Positions 16,953 to 25,470 of a stretch of DNA of 64,000 nucleotides are shown here, piece after piece; the stretch's first letter is position 1, and the number at the start of each line of letters is the position of its first letter. This DNA comes from Ancylobacter oerskovii (lineage in GTDB: Bacteria > Pseudomonadota > Alphaproteobacteria > Rhizobiales > Xanthobacteraceae). The stretch spans positions 310,001 to 374,000 of the forward strand of contig NZ_JAHBGB010000002.1 in assembly GCF_018390555.1 (NCBI RefSeq), written 5' to 3'. A program made the translations under genes and the position numbers. The notes beneath the pieces are model-generated. The model saw nothing but the letters and a program-made list of their open reading frames with translations. It was not told the DNA's origin and did not search any database.

Positions 16953-17121
16953 CCGCGCGGGCAAAGGATCGAGTTGCGGCGGAACCGGCGAGGTTTCATA
17001 GTCGCGCCAACGGATTCCCCGATCGATGATCGCGGCGCGTGCGGCCCGGCCGGGGCCACGGGCGAGCGGAGGGAGGCGAGGCGTCCGTCCCGCCTCTCCC
17101 AATCTCCCGGTGCCTCCCTTC

Positions 17122-18837
17122 ATGCCGCGCAAACCGTCCAACATCGTCTACGCCGCCGACGACAAGATGCCGCTCGGCACGCTGCTGGTCCTCGGCGTGC
17201 AGCACGCGACGCTCGCCCTGCTCTTCGTGGTCTATCCGCTGGTCGCCGCCACCGAGGCCGGCCTGTCGTTCACCGACACGCAGATCCTGATCACCAGCTG
17301 CATCATCTTCATGGGGGTGGCGACCATCCTCGAATGCCTGCCGCGCTCGAAATCCGGCGCCGGCATGCTGCTGGTGCAGATCCCCAATACCGCGCATCTG
17401 CCGCTGGCGGTGCAGGCGCTCTCGGCCGGCGGCACGGCGCTCTATGCGGCGATGAGCCTGATCGCGGCGGTCTCGCAGTTCTCGCTCACCCGGTTCCAGA
17501 ACGCGATGCGGGCGATGTTCCCGCCGGAGATCTGCGGCGTCGCCGTGACGATGCTGGGCGTGGCGCTGGCCGCGCCGGCGCTGCGCCGCATGTTCGGCCT
17601 CAGCGCCCATGAGGCGACGACGCTGCTCGACCTGCGCTACCCGCTGGTGAGCTTCACCGCGCTCCTGATCATCATCGTGCTGGCCATCTTCTCGCGCGGC
17701 GCGCTGCGGCTGTTCGCGGTGGCCATCGGCGCCGGCGTCGGCTGGGCGCTGGCCGCCTATGTCGGGGTCGCCCGCGCGCCGGCGGAGCCGGGTCTCGACG
17801 CCCTCGCCTTCATCGACCTGCCGCAGCTCGGCTGGCCCGGCCTCGCCTTCTCCTGGGCCATGCTGCCGGCCGCGGTGCTGACCGGCATCATCTCCGCCGT
17901 CGACATGCTCGGCACGGTGGTGTCGATGCAGCGCATGGACGACGCCGACTGGCGCCGCGCCGACATGGGACAGGCGGCCCGCGCCATCCGCGCCAACACG
18001 CTGAGCGACGCTGGCGCCGCCGTTACCGGCGGCTTCGCCAGCGCCTCCTCCTCGGCGGCCATCGGCGTCGCCTTCGCCACCGGCGCCACCGCCTGGCGCA
18101 TCGGCGTCGTCTCCGGCGTGATGATCCTGCTCGCCGCCTTCTCGCCGAAGCTCATCGGCGCGCTGACGGTGATCCCCGATCCGGTCGTCGGCGCCATCCT
18201 GGTCTACAGCGCGGCGTTCCTGATCGTGGCCGGCATGGAGCTCATCCTGTCCCGCCGGCTGAGCGACCGGCGCATCTTCACCGTCGGCCTGGCGGTGATG
18301 GCCGGGCTGGCGGTGGCGATCCTGCCCGAGCTGGTCCATGCCGCGCCGACCTGGGCGCAGCCGATCCTGGAATCGCCGCTGTCGGTGTCGACGGCGGTGG
18401 CCGTCGCCCTCAACCTGTTCTTCCGCATCGGCATCCGCCAGGAGGCGGCGGTGACGGTGACGACCGACGACAACCCGTTCACCGCCGCCACCGAGTTCCT
18501 GGAGCTCCAGGGCGACGTGTGGGGCGCCCGGCGCGACGTGGTGGCCGCCGCCATCCCGGTGGTGGCGGAGGCGGTGGAGATGCTGCTCGACACCGGCGTC
18601 GCCCCCGGCGAGCTGGAGATGCGGGCGAAGTTCGACGAGATGAATTTCGACGTCGTGCTCGCCTATCGGGGCGAGGCGATCGAGATCCCCACGCTGCGCC
18701 CCTCGCCCGAGGACCTGCTCGGCGACAGCGCGGCGGTGGCGCGCTTCGTCGGCTACATGCTGAGCAAACGCGCCGACAAGCTGGTGATCGGCAAGACCGG
18801 CGACCGCCAGGCGCTCACCCTGCGCTTCGAGCATTGA
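17122..18837 (+). CDS. NCS2-type nucleobase permease with C-terminal GHKL-ATPase-like domain
   Basis: A 571-aa protein. Residues 1-440 form an NCS2 (SLC23, xanthine/uracil) permease with about 14 hydrophobic segments. The segment ISAVDMLGTV has Asp where the family usually has Glu, and SSAAIGVAFATG lacks the canonical Gln-Asn, so the substrate may not be a nucleobase. Residues ~457-571 are soluble and align by eye with the kinase encoded at 19312: NFDVVLAYRGEAIEIP against EVEVVLADDGDAFDPF, and a shared helix and final strand QALTLRF. The N-box Asn and the G1 Asp are gone, so ATP binding is unlikely. STAS and kinase genes follow directly. Start uncertain; an in-frame GTG lies at 17110. Confidence 0.8.
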   Translation: MPRKPSNIVYAADDKMPLGTLLVLGVQHATLALLFVVYPLVAATEAGLSFTDTQILITSCIIFMGVATILECLPRSKSGAGMLLVQIPNTAHLPLAVQALSAGGTALYAAMSLIAAVSQFSLTRFQNAMRAMFPPEICGVAVTMLGVALAAPALRRMFGLSAHEATTLLDLRYPLVSFTALLIIIVLAIFSRGALRLFAVAIGAGVGWALAAYVGVARAPAEPGLDALAFIDLPQLGWPGLAFSWAMLPAAVLTGIISAVDMLGTVVSMQRMDDADWRRADMGQAARAIRANTLSDAGAAVTGGFASASSSAAIGVAFATGATAWRIGVVSGVMILLAAFSPKLIGALTVIPDPVVGAILVYSAAFLIVAGMELILSRRLSDRRIFTVGLAVMAGLAVAILPELVHAAPTWAQPILESPLSVSTAVAVALNLFFRIGIRQEAAVTVTTDDNPFTAATEFLELQGDVWGARRDVVAAAIPVVAEAVEMLLDTGVAPGELEMRAKFDEMNFDVVLAYRGEAIEIPTLRPSPEDLLGDSAAVARFVGYMLSKRADKLVIGKTGDRQALTLRFEH

Positions 18838-18947
18838 GACCGTGCAGCGCCCGCTTGCCGGCGGGCGTCGATGTCGGATAGTTCTGATGCGGTTCGAGGC
18901 GGCCTGTGCCGCCTTGCCCGCCCCCTTGAGCCGGAGCCGTGTCTTCG

Positions 18948-19280
18948 ATGCAGATCGACCGTTTTGTCGAGAAGGATGTGGTGATCACCGCGGTCAGGGG
19001 GCGGCTCGACAGCTCCACCTCGCCGAAGCTCGACGAGTTCATGGCGGTGATCCCCGATGGCAGCAGCGCGCTGCTGCTGGATTTCGCCGAGCTCACCTAT
19101 ATCTCCTCGGCGGGGCTGCGCGTGGTGCTGAAGGCCGCGAAGCTGGCCAAGGGCTCCGGCGTCACCCTCGCCATTTGCGGGCTGATCCCGCCGGTGCACG
19201 AGGTCTTCGACGTCAGCGGCTTCTCGACCCTCATCCCCATCCACCCGACCCGCGACGCCGCGCTGGCCATCCTGGCCTGA
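18948..19280 (+). CDS. STAS domain protein (anti-sigma factor antagonist, RsbV/SpoIIAA-like)
   Basis: A 110-aa single STAS domain. The strand-loop LTYISSAGLRVVL holds the phosphorylatable Ser equivalent to SpoIIAA Ser58, here about Ser54. In known partner-switching circuits the unphosphorylated form binds a GHKL kinase and displaces that kinase's other partner. It is followed after 31 bp by just such a kinase and preceded by the permease with the ATPase-like tail. The ATG at 18948 has CGGAG about 11 nt upstream; a GTG nine bases earlier is too close to it. Confidence 0.9.
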   Translation: MQIDRFVEKDVVITAVRGRLDSSTSPKLDEFMAVIPDGSSALLLDFAELTYISSAGLRVVLKAAKLAKGSGVTLAICGLIPPVHEVFDVSGFSTLIPIHPTRDAALAILA

Positions 19281-19311
19281 GCGTTTCCTCGAGAGCGGCA
19301 GCGGAGAGCCC

Positions 19312-19734
19312 ATGATCATCGCGCAGCTCGATCTCCGCCTCGCGAATGACCTAGCGGAACTCGAGCCGCTGGTGCGGGCGCTGGAGTTCTTCGCCGAGGC
19401 CTCGGCGCTGCCGGAGAAGGTGGCCCATCGCCTCACCCTCGCGGTCGACGAGTTCGTCAACAACGCCGTCGACTACGGCTATGCCGACCGGCGGGCCGGC
19501 GAGATCACCGTGTCGGTCCGCCATCGCGGCGAGGAGGTGGAGGTCGTGCTCGCCGACGACGGCGATGCCTTCGATCCCTTCACCGCCCCGGCGCCGGACC
19601 TCACCAGTTCCATCGAGGAGCGCCGCATCGGCGGCCTCGGCGTGCATCTGGTGCGCACGCTGGCGGCCCGCTTCGCCTATCGGCGCGAGGACGGATGCAA
19701 CGTGGTCACGCTCGCCTTCACCCTCGACGGCTAG
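19312..19734 (+). CDS. Anti-sigma-type serine kinase, HATPase_c_2 (RsbW-like)
   Basis: A 140-aa stand-alone GHKL ATPase. The N-box AVDEFVNNAVDYGY (Glu47, Asn50/51), G1 box ADDGDAFDP and G2 box GGLGVHL are all intact, so it should bind ATP and phosphorylate the STAS protein encoded just upstream. A GGAGA lies 6 nt before the ATG. No sigma factor gene is nearby, so its alternative partner is unknown. The ATPase-like tail of the permease two genes upstream is a candidate (inference). Confidence 0.9.
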   Translation: MIIAQLDLRLANDLAELEPLVRALEFFAEASALPEKVAHRLTLAVDEFVNNAVDYGYADRRAGEITVSVRHRGEEVEVVLADDGDAFDPFTAPAPDLTSSIEERRIGGLGVHLVRTLAARFAYRREDGCNVVTLAFTLDG

Positions 19735-19758
19735 CCAAGCGCGCCGGAGCCGCGGGCG

Positions 19759-19789
19759 TCAGGCGCGGTGGGCATCAGGCGCGGTGGGC
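19759..19789. repeat. Duplicated 15-bp stop-codon region
   Basis: TCAGGCGCGGTGGGC occurs twice with a period of 16 bp. The copy at 19775-19789 holds the last codons and stop of the minus-strand Na/Pi cotransporter gene; the copy at 19759-19773 lies just beyond the stop. A short tandem duplication of the gene end explains it. Confidence 0.8.
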
Positions 19790-21355
19790 CTGACTGAAGC
19801 TGTTCACCACCTGCCGCGCCAGCCAGACGATGCGCTCGAACAGCAATGTCATGCGGAAGAGCGCGTCCTGCTGCAGCGGCGTAAGCGCCTGCTGGGCGGA
19901 CAGCCGCTGGCGCAGTGCCTCCATCACCTGGTCCCGATGGCCGAGCAGGCTGAGCACCAGCTCGGGATCCTCGACACCCAGGCTCTCCCCGTGCTCGGCG
20001 ACGGCCCCCAGCAGGGCGTGGAGGGATTCGATCAGCCGCCGCGCGGTCGGCAGCGCCTGGGCCGGGCCGGCGACCTCGGCGAATTCGCCCAGCGCCTCGT
20101 GCAGCGCCCCGACGCTGCCGGCGGCATCGTCCAGCAGCAGCGCCACCGCGACCTGCCGGCGGCTCATCTGGCCGTCCAGCAGCGTGGCGAGATAGGACCG
20201 GACCGTGCCGGCAAGGGCGATGCCCGCCGCCCGCAACGTCGCCGGCGCGGGGGTCGTCGGATCCGCCTCCTCGCGCACCTTGTCGAGCATCATCGGCAGG
20301 CGGTCGGTCAGCCGGGCCAGTTCGCGCACGGTGAGGTCGAGCGCGGCGGCGGGATCGGACAGGGATTCGCGCAGCAGGAAGGCCGGCTGCGCCAGCGTCT
20401 CCGCCGGGCTGGCCGGCAGATAGCGCTCCAGCAGCCGGCGCGTCGCCGGCTGGGCGAGCCCGGCGAGGAAGGCGCCGCCGATCTGCGCCAGCAGGAAGAT
20501 CACCGCGATCTGCGCCCGGGTGTCGTCATCCGCCGGCAGCAGCACGGCGACGGCATCGGGGAGGACGGCGGCGACGACGCAGAGCACCGCCAGCAGCAGC
20601 GAGCCGGCTCCCTTCTGCACCACCTGGATGGCGAAGATGAGCCGCCCCGCCATGGTCTCGCCGGGCACCATCAGCGCATTGTTGATCATGCCGGCGGCAT
20701 TGGCGCCGGCCACCAGCGGCAAGGCCGAGTTCAGGTCGAGCAGCCCGCCGCCCACCGCGGCGACGGCGATCGCCGCCGCCACCGAGGAGGACTGCGCCGC
20801 CACCGAGAAGGCGAAGCCGATCAGCGCCAGCAGCAGCGGATGCGCGAGCGCGACGGTCCACAAGGGATTGTGCATCAGGCTGTCGCGCACCGGCCCCACC
20901 GCCACCGCGACCAGATGCATGCCGAACAGCAGCAGCCCCGCCCCCAGCGCCGCTTCCACCACATGGCGCATGCGGTCGCCGCGGGCGAGCTTGAAATAGG
21001 TGATGAAGCCGCCGAGGCCGATGACGATCCCCGCCGCCGTCGAGGTGTCGATGGCGACGATCAGCGGCAGCAGCGCGGTGCCGACATTCGCCCAGTTCGG
21101 CGCCCCCAGCGCCGGGCCGGCGGGCAGCACGCCGCCGCGCACGAAGGAGACGATGATCCAGGCTACCGCCGTCGAGCTCTGGGTGACGATGCCGGCGATG
21201 ACGCCGCTGACGGCGCAACTCACCGGGCCGCGCAGCGCGCGGGAAAAGGCGGCGCGGCCGCGGCGGCCGACCAGCGGCACCAGATTGGCGGACAGGGAGC
21301 GCACGCCGATGAAGAACAGGCCGAGGCCGCTGAGCAGCAATGCCAGGGTCGCCAT
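19775..21355 (-). CDS. Na/Pi cotransporter family protein
   Basis: A 526-aa protein of the Na/Pi cotransporter (PF02690, NptA/YjbB-like) family. It has two inverted hydrophobic repeats, each with the Gln-Ser-Ser motif: GIVTQSSTAVAW at about residue 60 and VAAQSSSVAAAIAVA near residue 190. About 200 C-terminal residues are helical and PhoU-like. Such proteins move phosphate with sodium, and several bacterial ones export phosphate. It sits inside a signalling cluster, converging on the RsbW-like kinase gene with the receiver gene upstream on the same strand, suggesting its activity or expression is tied to that circuit. Confidence 0.88.
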   Translation of the reverse strand: MATLALLLSGLGLFFIGVRSLSANLVPLVGRRGRAAFSRALRGPVSCAVSGVIAGIVTQSSTAVAWIIVSFVRGGVLPAGPALGAPNWANVGTALLPLIVAIDTSTAAGIVIGLGGFITYFKLARGDRMRHVVEAALGAGLLLFGMHLVAVAVGPVRDSLMHNPLWTVALAHPLLLALIGFAFSVAAQSSSVAAAIAVAAVGGGLLDLNSALPLVAGANAAGMINNALMVPGETMAGRLIFAIQVVQKGAGSLLLAVLCVVAAVLPDAVAVLLPADDDTRAQIAVIFLLAQIGGAFLAGLAQPATRRLLERYLPASPAETLAQPAFLLRESLSDPAAALDLTVRELARLTDRLPMMLDKVREEADPTTPAPATLRAAGIALAGTVRSYLATLLDGQMSRRQVAVALLLDDAAGSVGALHEALGEFAEVAGPAQALPTARRLIESLHALLGAVAEHGESLGVEDPELVLSLLGHRDQVMEALRQRLSAQQALTPLQQDALFRMTLLFERIVWLARQVVNSFSQAHRA

Positions 21356-21486
21356 GCGGTCAACGACCCCTCAGGAGCAAGCGCGGCATGCCATTCCTCA
21401 TCGATTGCGCGGGACGAGCGCGCCGGGGCGCGCCGCCGCCCCGTGCAAGAGCGGGGCCGATCCGGGCAAGCGCCACGCCGGGCGCA

Positions 21487-21858
21487 TCACCCTTCCTCGC
21501 CGAGCAACGCCCGGATCTTGCCCAGCAGCCGCGGCAGCTCGACCGGCTTGGTATCGAACTCGTCGCAGCCGGCCGCCATCGCCGCCTCGCGGTCCTGTTC
21601 CATCGCATGGGCGGTCAGCGCGATCACCGGTATGGCGGCGGTCTCGGGCGCCGCCTTCACCCGCCGGGTCGCCTCCCAGCCGTCGAGCACCGGCAGGCTC
21701 ATATCCATGAGAATGAGGTCGGGCCGGCGCGAGGTGGCGAGATCCACGCCCTGCTGCCCGTCCACCGCCAGCAGCACCTCGTAGCCGTTGCGCGTGAGGC
21801 GCCGCGAAAGCATGTCGCGGTTCATCTCGTTGTCTTCGACAAGCAGGATCGTCGCCAT
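21487..21858 (-). CDS. Single-domain response regulator (CheY-like)
   Basis: A 123-aa receiver domain alone, with the acidic pocket VEDN at the start, phosphoacceptor Asp52 in LILMDMSLP, the conserved Thr/Ala in ALTAHA and Lys in DTKPVELP. With no output domain it should act by protein contact or as a phosphorelay shuttle, plausibly receiving phosphate from the hybrid kinase whose gene ends 3 bp upstream. Both genes are likely on one transcript. Confidence 0.92.
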   Translation of the reverse strand: MATILLVEDNEMNRDMLSRRLTRNGYEVLLAVDGQQGVDLATSRRPDLILMDMSLPVLDGWEATRRVKAAPETAAIPVIALTAHAMEQDREAAMAAGCDEFDTKPVELPRLLGKIRALLGEEG

Positions 21859-21861
21859 GGC

Positions 21862-24240
21862 CTAGCCCGCCCCGCCCGGCGCGGCCTTGCCGGCCGCGCT
21901 TTTGCCGCCCACGCCCCGGCTGCGCCCGGCGATCGCCGACAGGGCCGCCCCCAGCGTGCCGATCGGCTGCGCGCTCTTGTTGAGGATCAGCAGCGTGTTC
22001 TGCGCCAGATAGCTGCGTTCGCTCTCGGTCAGCTCCTTTGCCGTCAGCACCACGATGGGCAGGTCGGCATAGGCGGAGTTGGCGCGCACCTCGCTGAGGA
22101 AGGCGAAGCCGTCCATCACCGGCATCATCAGGTCGAGCAGCACCAGCGACGGCAGCGGATGGGCACCGAGCCAGACAAGCGCCTCGCGGCCGTTGCCGGC
22201 CTCGGCGGCGTGGAGCCCGCCATCCTCGATGGCCGCCCGCACCATCGCCCGCACGTCCGGGTCGTCGTCCACCACCAGCACCTGTCCCCCCTCCTCGCCG
22301 GGGGTGAATTTGTGGATCAGCCCCAGCAGGCGCTGCCGGTCGATCGGCTTGGTCATGTATTCGGAGGCGCCGAGCGCGTAGCCGAGGTTCCGGTCGTCGA
22401 CGATGGTGAGCATGATCACCGGGATATGCGCCAGCTCCGGCTCGGACTTCATGATGCCCAGCACCGACCAGCCATCGATCTTCGGCATCATCACGTCGAG
22501 CGTGACGATGTCCGGCGGATCCCGGCGCATGATGTCGAGCGCGTCGATGCCGTCGCGCGCATGGCGCAGCACATAGCCCTCCTTGCCGAGGGTGGCCGCC
22601 AGCACTTCGTGGACGGCGGGATCGTCATCGACCACCAGCACGGTGATGGCGCCCGCCTCGACCGGGGCTCCCCCGTCGATCACCGGCGCCTCCGCCGGCG
22701 GGGCCTCGGCCGCCTCGGCCGGCAGCTCGATGGCGAAGACCGACCCCTCGCCGGGCACGCTGCTCACCGTGATGGTGCCGCCCAGCATGGCGACGAAATG
22801 CTTGGTGATGGTGAGGCCCAGCCCGGTGCCGCCGAAATTGCGGGTGGTGGAGGAATCCGCCTGGGTGAAGGCCTGGAACAGCCGGCCGATCTGCTCCTCG
22901 GTCATGCCGATGCCGGTGTCGCGCACCTCGAAGCGCACCGTGCCGACCTCCCCTTCCTGGCGGCGCGTGACGGAAAGGCTCACCTGCCCGCCCTTGGTGA
23001 ATTTGGCGGCGTTGGAGAGCAGGTTGATCAGGCTCTGCTTGAGCTTGGTGACGTCGGTGCGCAGCGAGCCGAGATCGAGCGGGCAGTCGATGACGAAGCG
23101 GTTGCCGTTCTTCTCCATCATCGGGCCGACGATGGTGCGCACCTCGTCCACCGTGCGGTTCAGGAACACCTGCTCCAGATAGACGTCCATGCGCCCCGCC
23201 TCGATCTTCGACAGATCGAGGATGTCGTTGATGAGGCCGAGCAGATGCTTGCCGGCCGCCTGGATCTTGTCGAGGTCGGCCACCATGGCGGTGTCGCCAT
23301 TGTCGGCGGCGTCTTCGCTGAGGATCTCGCTGTAGCCGATGATGGCGTTGAGCGGCGTGCGCAGCTCATGGCTCATATTGGCGAGGAAGGCGGATTTCAC
23401 CTGGCTCGCCGATTCCGCCGCCTCCTTGGCCTCGCGCAGCTGCTGCTCCATCTGCACGCGGTCGGTGATGTCGACGAAGGTGGCGATGATGGCCGGCTCG
23501 CCGCGGAAATCGAGATCGCCATGCGCCACCATGGTCCAGATGGGCGCGCCGTCCGGGCCGGGCAGGATGAATTCGCGCCGCTCGACAGGTGGGCCGGCGA
23601 GAATGTCCCACAGCTCCCGCCCCTTGTCGGGATCGGCGAACATCGCCTCCACCGGACGGCCGGCAAGGGTGGCGGCCTCGCGGCCGATGAGCCGGCTCAT
23701 CCCGCCGTTCAGATGCCGGATCAGGTGGCTGGCACGGTCGATGATGACGAGGCCCACCGGCGCGGCGGCATCCACCGCCCGCAGCTGCTCCTCGTCCTCG
23801 CGCAGCTTCATCTCGGCGAGCTTGCGCTCGGTGATGTCGGTGTAGATGGCGATGAAGCCGCCGCCCGGCACCGGGTCGCGCCGCACCTCGAGGATGGTGC
23901 CGTCGGGGCGGGTGCGCTCGAAGCGGTGGGAATGGTCGAGCTGGGCGAGGCGCCTGGCGAGCACGGCCTCTATGTCGACCTGGTCGCCGAACTCGCCCCG
24001 CGCGCCGAGATAGCGGATGTAGTCCTGGAAGGTGTGGGCGTTGTCGAAGAACTCGTCGGGCATGTCGAGATATTCGCGGAACAGCTGGTTCCAGGTGACG
24101 AGCCGGTAACTGGCATCGTACATGGCGACGCCCTGCGCCATGTTCTCCAGCGTCGCCCGCAGCAGCGTCGCCTCCCGGCCCAGGCCGCCGGGATCATAGG
24201 GGCAGGCATCGCCGTCCTGCTGTGCCGCCTCGCCGTCCAT
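21862..24240 (-). CDS. Hybrid sensor histidine kinase, PAS-PAS-HisKA-HATPase-REC-REC
   Basis: A 792-aa soluble hybrid kinase with no membrane segment. PAS domains cover about residues 22-140 and 150-265. The HisKA box [16 protein letters not shown] puts the phosphoacceptor at His291. The ATPase carries N-box Asn410, G1 DTGIGM near 441 and G2 GTGLGL near 471. Two receivers follow, with Asp582 (VTLDVMMP) and Asp703 (VLLDLMMP). The signal must be cytoplasmic, for example a ligand or redox state sensed by a PAS domain. The receiver gene follows after 3 bp and the receiver-phosphatase gene lies upstream, so phosphate flow among these proteins is likely. Confidence 0.92.
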
Positions 24241-24297
24241 CTTCCCGTTCCCCCGACCTCTTGCGCGACCAGCAGTAAAGCCCGGCCGCGATTCCGG

Positions 24298-25470
24298 CTA
24301 GATCACATCCACGCTCAGCAGGATGGCCGCCATGTCGTCCGATGGCGGCTCCCCGGCCTCGAAGGCGCGCACCGCCCCGACCAGGCTCTGCAGCACGGCG
24401 CCCGGCCCGGTGCCGGAGGCGGCGAGCAGTTCGCCGACCGGCGCCTCGCCGAACAGCGTCCCCGCCGGATCCTGCGCCTCGGTGAAGCCGTCGGTCACGA
24501 TGAGCAGCCGGTCGCCCGCCGCCAGCTCGGCGCGGTCGGCGCGATAGGCGAAGCCCTCGACGATGCCGAGCGCCGGGCCGCTCCCCCCGGCGAGCCGAAG
24601 GACCGCACCGTCCCGGCGGGCGAGATAGGGCGGCACATGGCCGGCCCGCACATAGGCGAGCGCGCCGGTGGCGAGATCGACGCTGACCAGCGCGAAGGTG
24701 ACGAACATGCAGCCGGCATTGCCGCGCGCCAGCGCCTCGTTGACCAACCCGACCGCCCGCGCCGGATCGGCGAACAGCTCCGGTGCGTCGGGCCGCGCCG
24801 CCAGCGCCCGGAAGAGCGCATGGGTGCGCGCCATCATCAGCGCCGCGCCGGCGCCCTTGTCGGAAACGTCGCCGAGGGCCAGCACCACCCGGTCGTCGTC
24901 GATGAAGAAATAGTCGACGAGATCGCCGCCGACCTCCTTGGCCGGATCCAGCAGCGCCTCGACGGCGATCCGCCGTCCCGCCGCCTCGCCGGCGAAGGGC
25001 GGCGGCACCAGGTCGAGCTGCAGGGTCCGCGCCTCGTTGAGCTCGGCCTGCTTGCGCTTCAGCTCGTCGCGGGTGCGGTCGCGCAGCGCCTTCTTCTCCA
25101 GCGTGGCGAGCACGCGGGCGCGCAGCAGCGTCGGGTTGAACGGCTTGAAGATGAAGTCGTCGGCGCCGAGCTCGATGCAGCGCACCACCGGGTCGAGCTC
25201 GTTGAGCGCGGAAACCACGATCACCGGCAGGTCGTTGAGCCGGCCGTCGCGGCGCAGGGCTTCCAGCACGCCGAAGCCGTCGAGCTCCGGCATCATGATG
25301 TCGAGCAGCACGAGGTCGTAGGGGGTCTTGGCGATGGCCGCCAGCGCCTCATGGCCATTGGCGGCCTCGTCGATGCGGTTCAGCCCCAGCCGGCGCAGGC
25401 GACGAGCCAGAAGATCGCGGTTTTCCGCCACGTCGTCGACCACCAGAATGGTCGCATTCTGGTCCACCAT
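24298..25470 (-). CDS. Response regulator fused to PP2C-type (SpoIIE/RsbU) phosphatase
   Basis: A 390-aa protein. The receiver covers residues 1-125 with phosphoacceptor Asp57 in VLLDIMMP. A coiled-coil linker of ~40 residues (LKRKQAELNEARTLQ) leads to a SpoIIE/PP2C domain at ~165-390 with metal-binding motifs AKEVGGDLVDY, GDVSDKGAGAAL and SDDMAAILL. By analogy with RsbU it should dephosphorylate a phospho-STAS protein when its receiver is phosphorylated; the STAS protein at 18948 is the obvious candidate. The start MVDQNATILVVDD was chosen because upstream in-frame sequence is not protein-like. Confidence 0.92.
   Translation of the reverse strand: MVDQNATILVVDDVAENRDLLARRLRRLGLNRIDEAANGHEALAAIAKTPYDLVLLDIMMPELDGFGVLEALRRDGRLNDLPVIVVSALNELDPVVRCIELGADDFIFKPFNPTLLRARVLATLEKKALRDRTRDELKRKQAELNEARTLQLDLVPPPFAGEAAGRRIAVEALLDPAKEVGGDLVDYFFIDDDRVVLALGDVSDKGAGAALMMARTHALFRALAARPDAPELFADPARAVGLVNEALARGNAGCMFVTFALVSVDLATGALAYVRAGHVPPYLARRDGAVLRLAGGSGPALGIVEGFAYRADRAELAAGDRLLIVTDGFTEAQDPAGTLFGEAPVGELLAASGTGPGAVLQSLVGAVRAFEAGEPPSDDMAAILLSVDVI

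What the first reader, a model, noticed from the sequence alone, without database searches (positions are those of the whole stretch)
17122..25470. A complete partner-switching circuit built around two membrane transporters, with no sigma factor
Seen: genes for STAS (phospho-Ser ~54 present), an intact RsbW-like kinase, a receiver-PP2C phosphatase, a hybrid PAS kinase with two receivers and a lone receiver lie together with an NCS2-type permease and a Na/Pi cotransporter. Known: RsbU/RsbV/RsbW-type modules normally release a sigma factor or other client. Inferred: here the client is transport. The histidine kinase would phosphorylate the receiver-phosphatase, which dephosphorylates STAS, changing what the kinase binds, perhaps the permease tail. 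This would be post-translational control of uptake by partner switching.
Basis: partly seen in the sequence, partly recalled or inferred. Interest (0 to 1): 0.78.

Follow-up and report, generated by a model that had tools for sequence, protein, structure and literature searches.

The report
Transporter with a dead RsbW-type tail
An Ancylobacter gene cluster pairs a membrane transporter, whose tail is a burnt-out copy of an anti-sigma-factor kinase, with the complete protein switch that such kinases normally run, which suggests that the switch acts on the transporter instead of a sigma factor.

Summary
The key fact was missed. The last ~115 residues of the NCS2 permease form a degenerate RsbW/SpoIIAB domain (AlphaFold pLDDT 94.7; the nine best PDB matches are RsbW, SpoIIAB or UsfX; profile match to RsbW E 7e-11) whose ATP-binding residues are replaced. 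STAS, the usual ligand of that fold, is encoded next door. The architecture recurs: of 77 tailed loci, 31 have STAS and RsbW beside the permease, against 0 of 15 untailed NCS2 loci. In the family sample 14 of 14 genomes with a tailed permease have RsbW (1 of 47 others at E<=1e-14; 17 of 47 at 1e-10). In 9 of 11 family genomes with an unlinked permease, a Na/Pi cotransporter lies between RsbW and STAS. No SigB/F/G reaches the cut-off in this genome. Best reading: unphosphorylated STAS moves between the RsbW kinase and the pseudo-RsbW tail, coupling a two-component signal to the transporter. Binding and the effect on transport are inferred. Against: two tailed genomes lack RsbW, 46 of 77 tailed loci lack the nearby pair, one prediction of mine failed, the cargo is unknown, and a sensor role is possible.

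The parts
17119..18837 (+). NCS2 (SLC23-type) permease with C-terminal pseudo-RsbW domain
   Evidence: PF00860 3.9e-36; tailed family in 77 loci
18451..18834 (+). pseudo-RsbW (degenerate GHKL) domain, stretch that was modelled
   Evidence: AF2 pLDDT 94.7, pTM 0.89; Foldseek top nine all RsbW/SpoIIAB/UsfX; hhalign to RsbW Prob 97.1, E 6.7e-11; ATP motifs replaced
18939..19280 (+). STAS protein (RsbV/SpoIIAA-like), phospho-Ser57 from GTG or Ser54 from ATG 18948
   Evidence: PF01740 6.5e-15; Ser column S in 51 of 52 rows, T in 1
19312..19734 (+). RsbW-like serine kinase, motifs intact
   Evidence: PF13581 2.9e-27; E47, N51, DDG82-84, GGLG107-110
19775..21355 (-). Na/Pi cotransporter (NptA family) with helical PhoU-like tail
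   Evidence: PF02690 1e-27; tail model pLDDT 77.9, weak PhoU-type matches
21487..21858 (-). lone receiver
   Evidence: PF00072 1.7e-25
21862..24240 (-). hybrid histidine kinase, PAS-PAS-HisKA-HATPase_c-REC-REC
24298..25470 (-). receiver-PP2C (SpoIIE/RsbU-type) phosphatase
   Evidence: PF07228 1e-42, PF00072 2.8e-28

Best explanation
A partner-switching module whose client is a transporter. The kinase RsbW phosphorylates STAS and switches it off; the receiver-PP2C, controlled by the hybrid PAS kinase and the lone receiver, dephosphorylates it. Unphosphorylated STAS then binds the catalytically dead RsbW domain at the C-terminus of the NCS2 permease and changes its activity (open/closed state, dimer or stability). 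Shown: the genes, their motifs, the predicted fold of the tail, loss of its ATP-binding residues, co-occurrence of tail and RsbW. Inferred: STAS-tail binding, phospho-control of it, direction (signal to transporter), and a link to NptA, which in sister genera sits between RsbW and STAS.
For: Tail fold: AF2 pLDDT 94.7; Foldseek ranks 1-9 of the PDB are all RsbW, SpoIIAB or UsfX, best E 3.2e-4 (4 matches with E <= 0.001), TM by query 0.57-0.66; hhalign of 97 tails against 56 RsbW domains: Prob 97.1, E 6.7e-11, 122 columns, while STAS, PP2C and NptA profiles give Prob 0.1-0.4. Tail is dead: the N-box Asn, 56 of 56 in RsbW, is Glu or Asp in 95 of 97 tails; Gly is not among the five commonest letters at either Gly of the G2 box, 56 of 56 in RsbW. 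Linkage: 31 of 77 tailed loci hold both STAS and RsbW (16 of 16 Ancylobacter group, 15 of 61 others), 0 of 15 untailed NCS2 loci of the family. Phyletic pattern, 61 family genomes: RsbW at E<=1e-14 in 14 of 14 with a tailed permease and 1 of 47 without (Fisher 6.7e-13); at the search's own 1e-10 limit 14 of 14 against 17 of 47 (p 1.8e-5). Of 20 further genomes with tailed loci 19 have RsbW at 1e-10; 5 of the 20 have it in the locus itself, 14 of the other 15 have it elsewhere. NptA stands between RsbW and STAS in 9 of 11 family genomes with an unlinked tail, and beside RsbW in 0 of 20 genomes without a tail. No SigB/F/G over the cut-off in the genome.
Against: No binding or transport data. 46 of 77 tailed loci lack the STAS+RsbW pair nearby, though some contigs are short; of two plasmids with relatives of the permease only Thiodictyon's has a switch nearby, Azospirillum's has none in 12 kb. 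Two tailed genomes have no RsbW hit: G066 (weak tail) and Halomonas campaniensis. My prediction that G583 and G533, whose RsbW nests with the tail-associated group, carry tailed permeases failed (0 of 20), so that RsbW group has other clients too. NptA is not constant: not found beside RsbW in G298 and G340, in Xanthobacter tagetidis (L191), and in all 11 of the 14 further unlinked genomes looked at, X. tagetidis among them, against 3 that show it. The Gln-Asn of ordinary NCS2 permeases is missing and the Glu is Asp, so that it transports at all is not certain. Family members share ancestry, so the Fisher values overstate independence; the 1e-14 cut was chosen after seeing the list.
Confidence: 0.55

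Rival explanations
1. Reverse flow: the permease is a sensor (transceptor). Substrate state decides whether the pseudo-RsbW tail holds STAS, so the tail sequesters STAS from RsbW and the output lies elsewhere (NptA or another client).
For: Residues that ordinary NCS2 permeases share in TM8 and TM10 differ, and vary, within the tailed family; NptA rather than the permease sits with RsbW and STAS in 9 of 11 unlinked family genomes; no SigB/F/G client.
Against: A two-component input (hybrid kinase, receiver-PP2C) already lies in the cluster, and a second sensor would be redundant; the TM8 change in the window protein is the mild Glu to Asp.
Confidence: 0.2
2. The tail pairs with the RsbW kinase itself (pseudo-heterodimer, as RsbW-type kinases dimerise) and controls its activity or places it at the membrane; STAS is not its direct ligand.
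Against: NCS2 permeases are themselves dimers (recalled), so two tails would more likely face each other; STAS without RsbW lies by the tailed permease in L076 (a 7-kb contig) and L104.
Confidence: 0.12
3. Neighbourhood without function: the module serves an unknown remote client (as for RbaV of Rhodobacter) and the tail merely stabilises or assembles the permease.
For: 46 of 77 tailed loci without the pair nearby; G066 and Halomonas without RsbW; RsbW of the same group without any tail in G583 and G533.
Against: Repeated linkage in shuffled orders in distant taxa, co-occurrence in the family.
Confidence: 0.13

Closest known systems
RsbU/RsbV/RsbW and SpoIIE/SpoIIAA/SpoIIAB partner switching (Bacillus)
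   Same: STAS with the conserved Ser, kinase with N, G1 and G2 boxes, PP2C phosphatase
   Different: No SigB/F/G over the cut-off in the genome; the candidate client is a transporter with a dead copy of the kinase fold
Non-canonical STAS-only systems such as SypA/SypE, RbaV, HmpV, BtrV (review PMC8256260, passages seen)
   Same: STAS switch without a sigma client shown; the review speaks of unknown targets for SypA, RbaV and HmpV
   Different: Here a structurally defined candidate target is encoded beside the switch
SLC26/SulP transporters with a fused STAS domain
   Same: Seven-plus-seven-helix transporter (shared with SLC23; PMC6497670, abstract start in the listing) with a partner-switch-type domain at the C-terminus
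   Different: The fused domain has the fold of the STAS partner (RsbW) and STAS is a separate protein
NCS2/SLC23 nucleobase permeases (XanQ, UraA, PbuX)
   Same: PF00860 over the membrane part
   Different: RsbW-fold tail; TM8 Glu is Asp and TM10 Gln-Asn is Ala-Ala in the window protein

Membership tests
RsbU/V/W-type partner-switching module | STAS protein with the phospho-acceptor Ser | tested here: met
   Ser57/Ser54; column S in 51 of 52 rows
RsbU/V/W-type partner-switching module | RsbW/SpoIIAB-type kinase with intact ATP motifs | tested here: met
   PF13581 2.9e-27; DEFVNN, DDG, GGLG
RsbU/V/W-type partner-switching module | PP2C (SpoIIE-type) phosphatase with conserved Asp residues (metal-binding role recalled) | tested here: met
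   PF07228 1e-42; five Asp columns with D in 41-43 of 45 rows, the rest gaps
RsbU/V/W-type partner-switching module | sigma factor of the SigB/F/G kind as client | tested here: not met
   TIGR02980: 0 of 5 hits over the cut-off in the own genome
RsbU/V/W-type partner-switching module | STAS bound by kinase or client in a phosphorylation-dependent way | not testable with these tools
   needs binding assay
RsbW/SpoIIAB fold (permease tail) | fold | tested here: met
   predicted model and profile comparison
RsbW/SpoIIAB fold (permease tail) | ATP-binding N, G1 and G2 boxes (active kinase) | tested here: not met
   N-box Asn to Glu/Asp in 95 of 97, G2 Gly not among the commonest letters: pseudo-kinase, not an active RsbW
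NCS2 nucleobase permease | membrane domain PF00860 | tested here: met
   3.9e-36
NCS2 nucleobase permease | TM8 Glu and TM10 Gln-Asn seen in untailed members (helix numbers and roles recalled) | tested here: not met
   present in 15 of 15 untailed; none of 24 tailed rows has the Glu (13 have Asp, the window among them); Gln-Asn is Ala-Ala in the window, the Asn alone is kept in some tailed rows
SLC26/SulP | C-terminal STAS domain | tested here: not met
   tail against STAS profile Prob 0.2

The most novel reading that the evidence does not exclude
A widespread bacterial class of transporters is gated by partner switching: a dead anti-sigma kinase domain fused to an NCS2-type transporter serves as docking site for unphosphorylated STAS, so the module long known for releasing sigma factors works here as post-translational control (or read-out) of membrane transport, possibly of a Na/Pi cotransporter too, and answers what some orphan STAS proteins bind.
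Probability: 0.5. Interest if true: 0.88.

Novelty: new variant of a known kind. Interest (0 to 1): 0.77.

Why it matters
Several non-sigma partner-switching systems have a STAS protein with an unknown target (PMC8256260, passages). A transporter that carries a dead copy of the STAS-binding kinase, encoded beside STAS, is a concrete and cheaply testable target. It also mirrors SLC26: the same transporter superfamily took one partner (STAS) as a tail there and the fold of the other partner (RsbW) here. No paper in the library held RsbW with NCS2, RsbW with 'solute carrier family 23', or the two Pfam names together; subscription papers and preprints were not searched.

Tried and rejected
Sigma factor as client: SigB/F/G rejected (ECF sigma factors were not searched for and are not excluded). 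Tail as STAS domain like SLC26: rejected. NptA tail as a second pseudo-RsbW: rejected; all-helical, weak PhoU-type matches mixed with ALMT channels, no hit with E <= 0.001. Sequence search of the tail in the PDB: nothing useful (best E 0.72). Pfam on the tail: no match. Substrate from gene neighbours of unlinked permeases: no common theme among 10 proteins of three loci. Prediction that G583 and G533 carry tailed permeases: failed. Promoters: none found; terminator-like sites about as many as by chance. An 871-residue MFS protein near Bordetella RsbW looked like a possible second client; its N-terminal half got no other Pfam match and no match to the cluster models.

Weak points of the counts: the E<=1e-14 cut in the family comparison was set after seeing the list; only 20 of the 63 phylum-sample genomes with RsbW at E<=1e-14 and no tail match were used as background; one search scored at most 10 candidates per genome, so its 4 of 398 is a lower bound, and three of those four have RsbW. 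The named set is the best 80 of 136 confirmed stretches, 78 loci; L055 (no tail in the contig) was dropped before the 77. Untailed against tailed outside Ancylobacter is only p 0.03. Of the further unlinked genomes, one to three of their RsbW places were looked at, not all. The RsbW tree used 87 rows; the 68-row group that holds all 33 linked and 31 of 36 other tail-genome RsbW has support 80/87 only and also takes in 3 of 17 background rows and G305. G305 has receiver-PP2C-RsbW, STAS, kinase and receiver but no tailed permease was found in it (its contig is 9 kb).
Full report
What is there. The window lies in an Ancylobacter genome (best named relatives A. sonchi and Ancylobacter sp. Lp-2, 98% in the permease). 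They form two convergent runs: permease-STAS-RsbW on the plus strand, PP2C-hybrid kinase-receiver-NptA on the minus strand. The kinase has intact N, G1 and G2 boxes; STAS has the phospho-acceptor Ser (Ser57 from the GTG start, Ser54 from the ATG at 18948); the PP2C family keeps its Asp columns.

The missed point. The permease continues for more than 100 residues after its membrane domain. No Pfam model matches this tail. It is conserved in distant permeases with an almost fixed core, WGARRDV...FDE...Y.G...FDH. AlphaFold2 on 65 aligned tails gives a confident model (pLDDT 94.7, pTM 0.89) of strand-helix-helix-strand-strand-helix-strand-strand order. Foldseek against the PDB returns RsbW (6m37, 6m36), SpoIIAB (1tid, 1th8, 1l0o, 1til) and UsfX (8ih8) in the first nine places, eight of them from complexes with a STAS partner; the E-values are modest (3.2e-4 to 1.8e-3), and histidine-kinase ATPase domains follow. 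A first profile comparison (21 tails, 3 RsbW) gave Prob 88, E 3.1e-6; with 97 tails and 56 RsbW domains it is Prob 97.1, E 6.7e-11 over 122 columns, and STAS, PP2C and NptA profiles as controls give Prob 0.1-0.4. Column by column the RsbW ATP-binding residues are replaced: the N-box Asn (56 of 56 in RsbW) is Glu in 89 and Asp in 6 of 97 tails; the first Asp of DDG (53 of 56) is Leu, Ser, Ile, Thr or Val in 77 of 97; the two Gly of GxG (56 of 56 each) are mostly Ala or Arg and Phe or Leu (five commonest letters printed per column). The tail is a pseudo-RsbW.

Distribution. A scan of the genome collection kept 78 loci, 77 with a tail: Ancylobacter, Xanthobacter, Azorhizobium, Aquabacter, Stella, Azospirillum, Bordetella, Achromobacter, Variovorax, Halomonas, Sporomusa and various MAGs. 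In 16 of 16 Ancylobacter-group loci STAS and RsbW lie within about 1 kb of the tail, and in 15 of these the full set with NptA, receiver, hybrid kinase and PP2C is present (L044, A. moscoviensis, has only the first half; a second stretch of that genome, L198, shows the same). Of the 61 others, 15 have both STAS and RsbW, one RsbW without STAS (L118), two STAS without RsbW (L076, L104), 43 neither. Gene order differs (kinase-receiver-PP2C-RsbW-STAS-permease in L115 with a permease only 29% identical; permease-STAS-PP2C-RsbW in L083; receiver, PP2C and RsbW in one open frame in L110), so linkage was re-made or kept despite rearrangement. Untailed NCS2 permeases in the same family: 0 of 15 loci with STAS, RsbW or PP2C. 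Among plasmids two records match: on Thiodictyon pTs417 two SLC23 proteins, STAS, SpoIIE phosphatase and a short ATP-binding protein are annotated within 11 kb (only one of the two permeases was matched over its full length in the rows shown); on the Azospirillum thermophilum plasmid there is no such switch within 12 kb.

Phyletic pattern. In 61 genomes of the family, 14 have a tailed permease (full-length matches). RsbW at E<=1e-14 occurs in those 14 and in one other (G305), i.e. 14 of 14 against 1 of 47 (Fisher 6.7e-13; by genus 8 of 8 against 1 of 39). Three of the 14 have RsbW beside the permease, eleven elsewhere, there with STAS close to RsbW in all eleven (L120-L130). G182, of the same class, also has RsbW. 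Of 20 further genomes holding tailed loci, 19 have RsbW at 1e-10; five of them in the locus itself, 14 of the remaining 15 elsewhere; Halomonas campaniensis has none. G159 has RsbW, while G066 has a weak tail and no RsbW. So a tail nearly always goes with RsbW, with two exceptions. The reverse does not hold: 20 genomes with RsbW and no tail match were checked with all candidates scored and none has a tail, including two whose RsbW nests inside the tail-associated group of the tree; I had predicted that those two would have one.

NptA. In nine family genomes of the Xanthobacter-Azorhizobium-Aquabacter group with the tailed permease elsewhere, NptA lies between RsbW and STAS (L120-L128): 9 of 11 unlinked family genomes, the other two being G298 and G340. 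NptA also neighbours RsbW in Stella (L131, L183), G159 (L157), Azorhizobium oxalatiphilum (L194) and Achromobacter sp. HZ34 (L195). It was not found beside RsbW in Xanthobacter tagetidis (L191), and of 14 further unlinked genomes looked at (this one included) only three show it. It neighbours RsbW in 0 of 20 genomes without a tail. The NptA tail is helical and PhoU-like, with weak structural matches; how it would meet the switch is unknown.

Mechanism. By analogy with RsbV/RsbW (established knowledge), the kinase phosphorylates STAS and the phosphatase reverses this under control of the hybrid kinase. A pseudo-RsbW should not phosphorylate STAS but could still bind the unphosphorylated form. 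This makes the tail the candidate client in place of a sigma factor. No SigB/F/G reaches the cut-off in the genome. Direction is open: STAS may gate the permease, or the permease may hold STAS in answer to its substrate. The second is not idle, because the TM10 Gln-Asn found in 15 of 15 untailed relatives is Ala-Ala in the window protein and the TM8 Glu is replaced in all 24 tailed rows shown; but in 13 of these, the window among them, the replacement is Asp, which is mild (the role of these residues is recalled, not tested).

Novelty. The library held no paper with RsbW and NCS2, RsbW and 'solute carrier family 23', or both Pfam names; broader searches (25 of 40 papers listed) listed no paper on a transporter as client, judged from titles and abstract beginnings. 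The review of STAS-only proteins (PMC8256260, passages seen) lists several systems with unknown targets. I class the system as a new variant of partner switching with a new kind of candidate client.

Noticed in passing
L133-L138 (for example L133:7883-9970): Single open frames of about 670-750 residues with an RsbW-like domain, a receiver and a PP2C domain in one chain, in tailed-permease genomes; the four that entered the RsbW tree fall outside the main group.
   Followed up: partly
L189:9731-14390, L195:9828-14647: In Bordetella and Achromobacter the STAS/RsbW pair is near an alanine racemase gene, an MFS protein of about 870 residues with an unmatched N-terminal half, and a PP2C protein (in L189 with Cache and HAMP domains and beside an ABC substrate-binding protein).
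   Followed up: partly
L083, L076, L104: Tailed permeases with STAS (and PP2C/RsbW in L083, PP2C in L104) in MAGs labelled Euryarchaeota, Armatimonadota and Sumerlaeota; mis-binning or transfer.
   Followed up: no
L093:7076-11653, L117:6475-11647: Two permeases with divergent tails (Pararhodobacter MAG, Halomonas) have a histidine kinase and receiver directly upstream instead of STAS/RsbW; the Halomonas genome has no RsbW hit.
   Followed up: partly
L061, L095, L096, L097, L106: Tandem pairs of tailed permeases, which suggests heterodimers or duplicated cargo.
   Followed up: no
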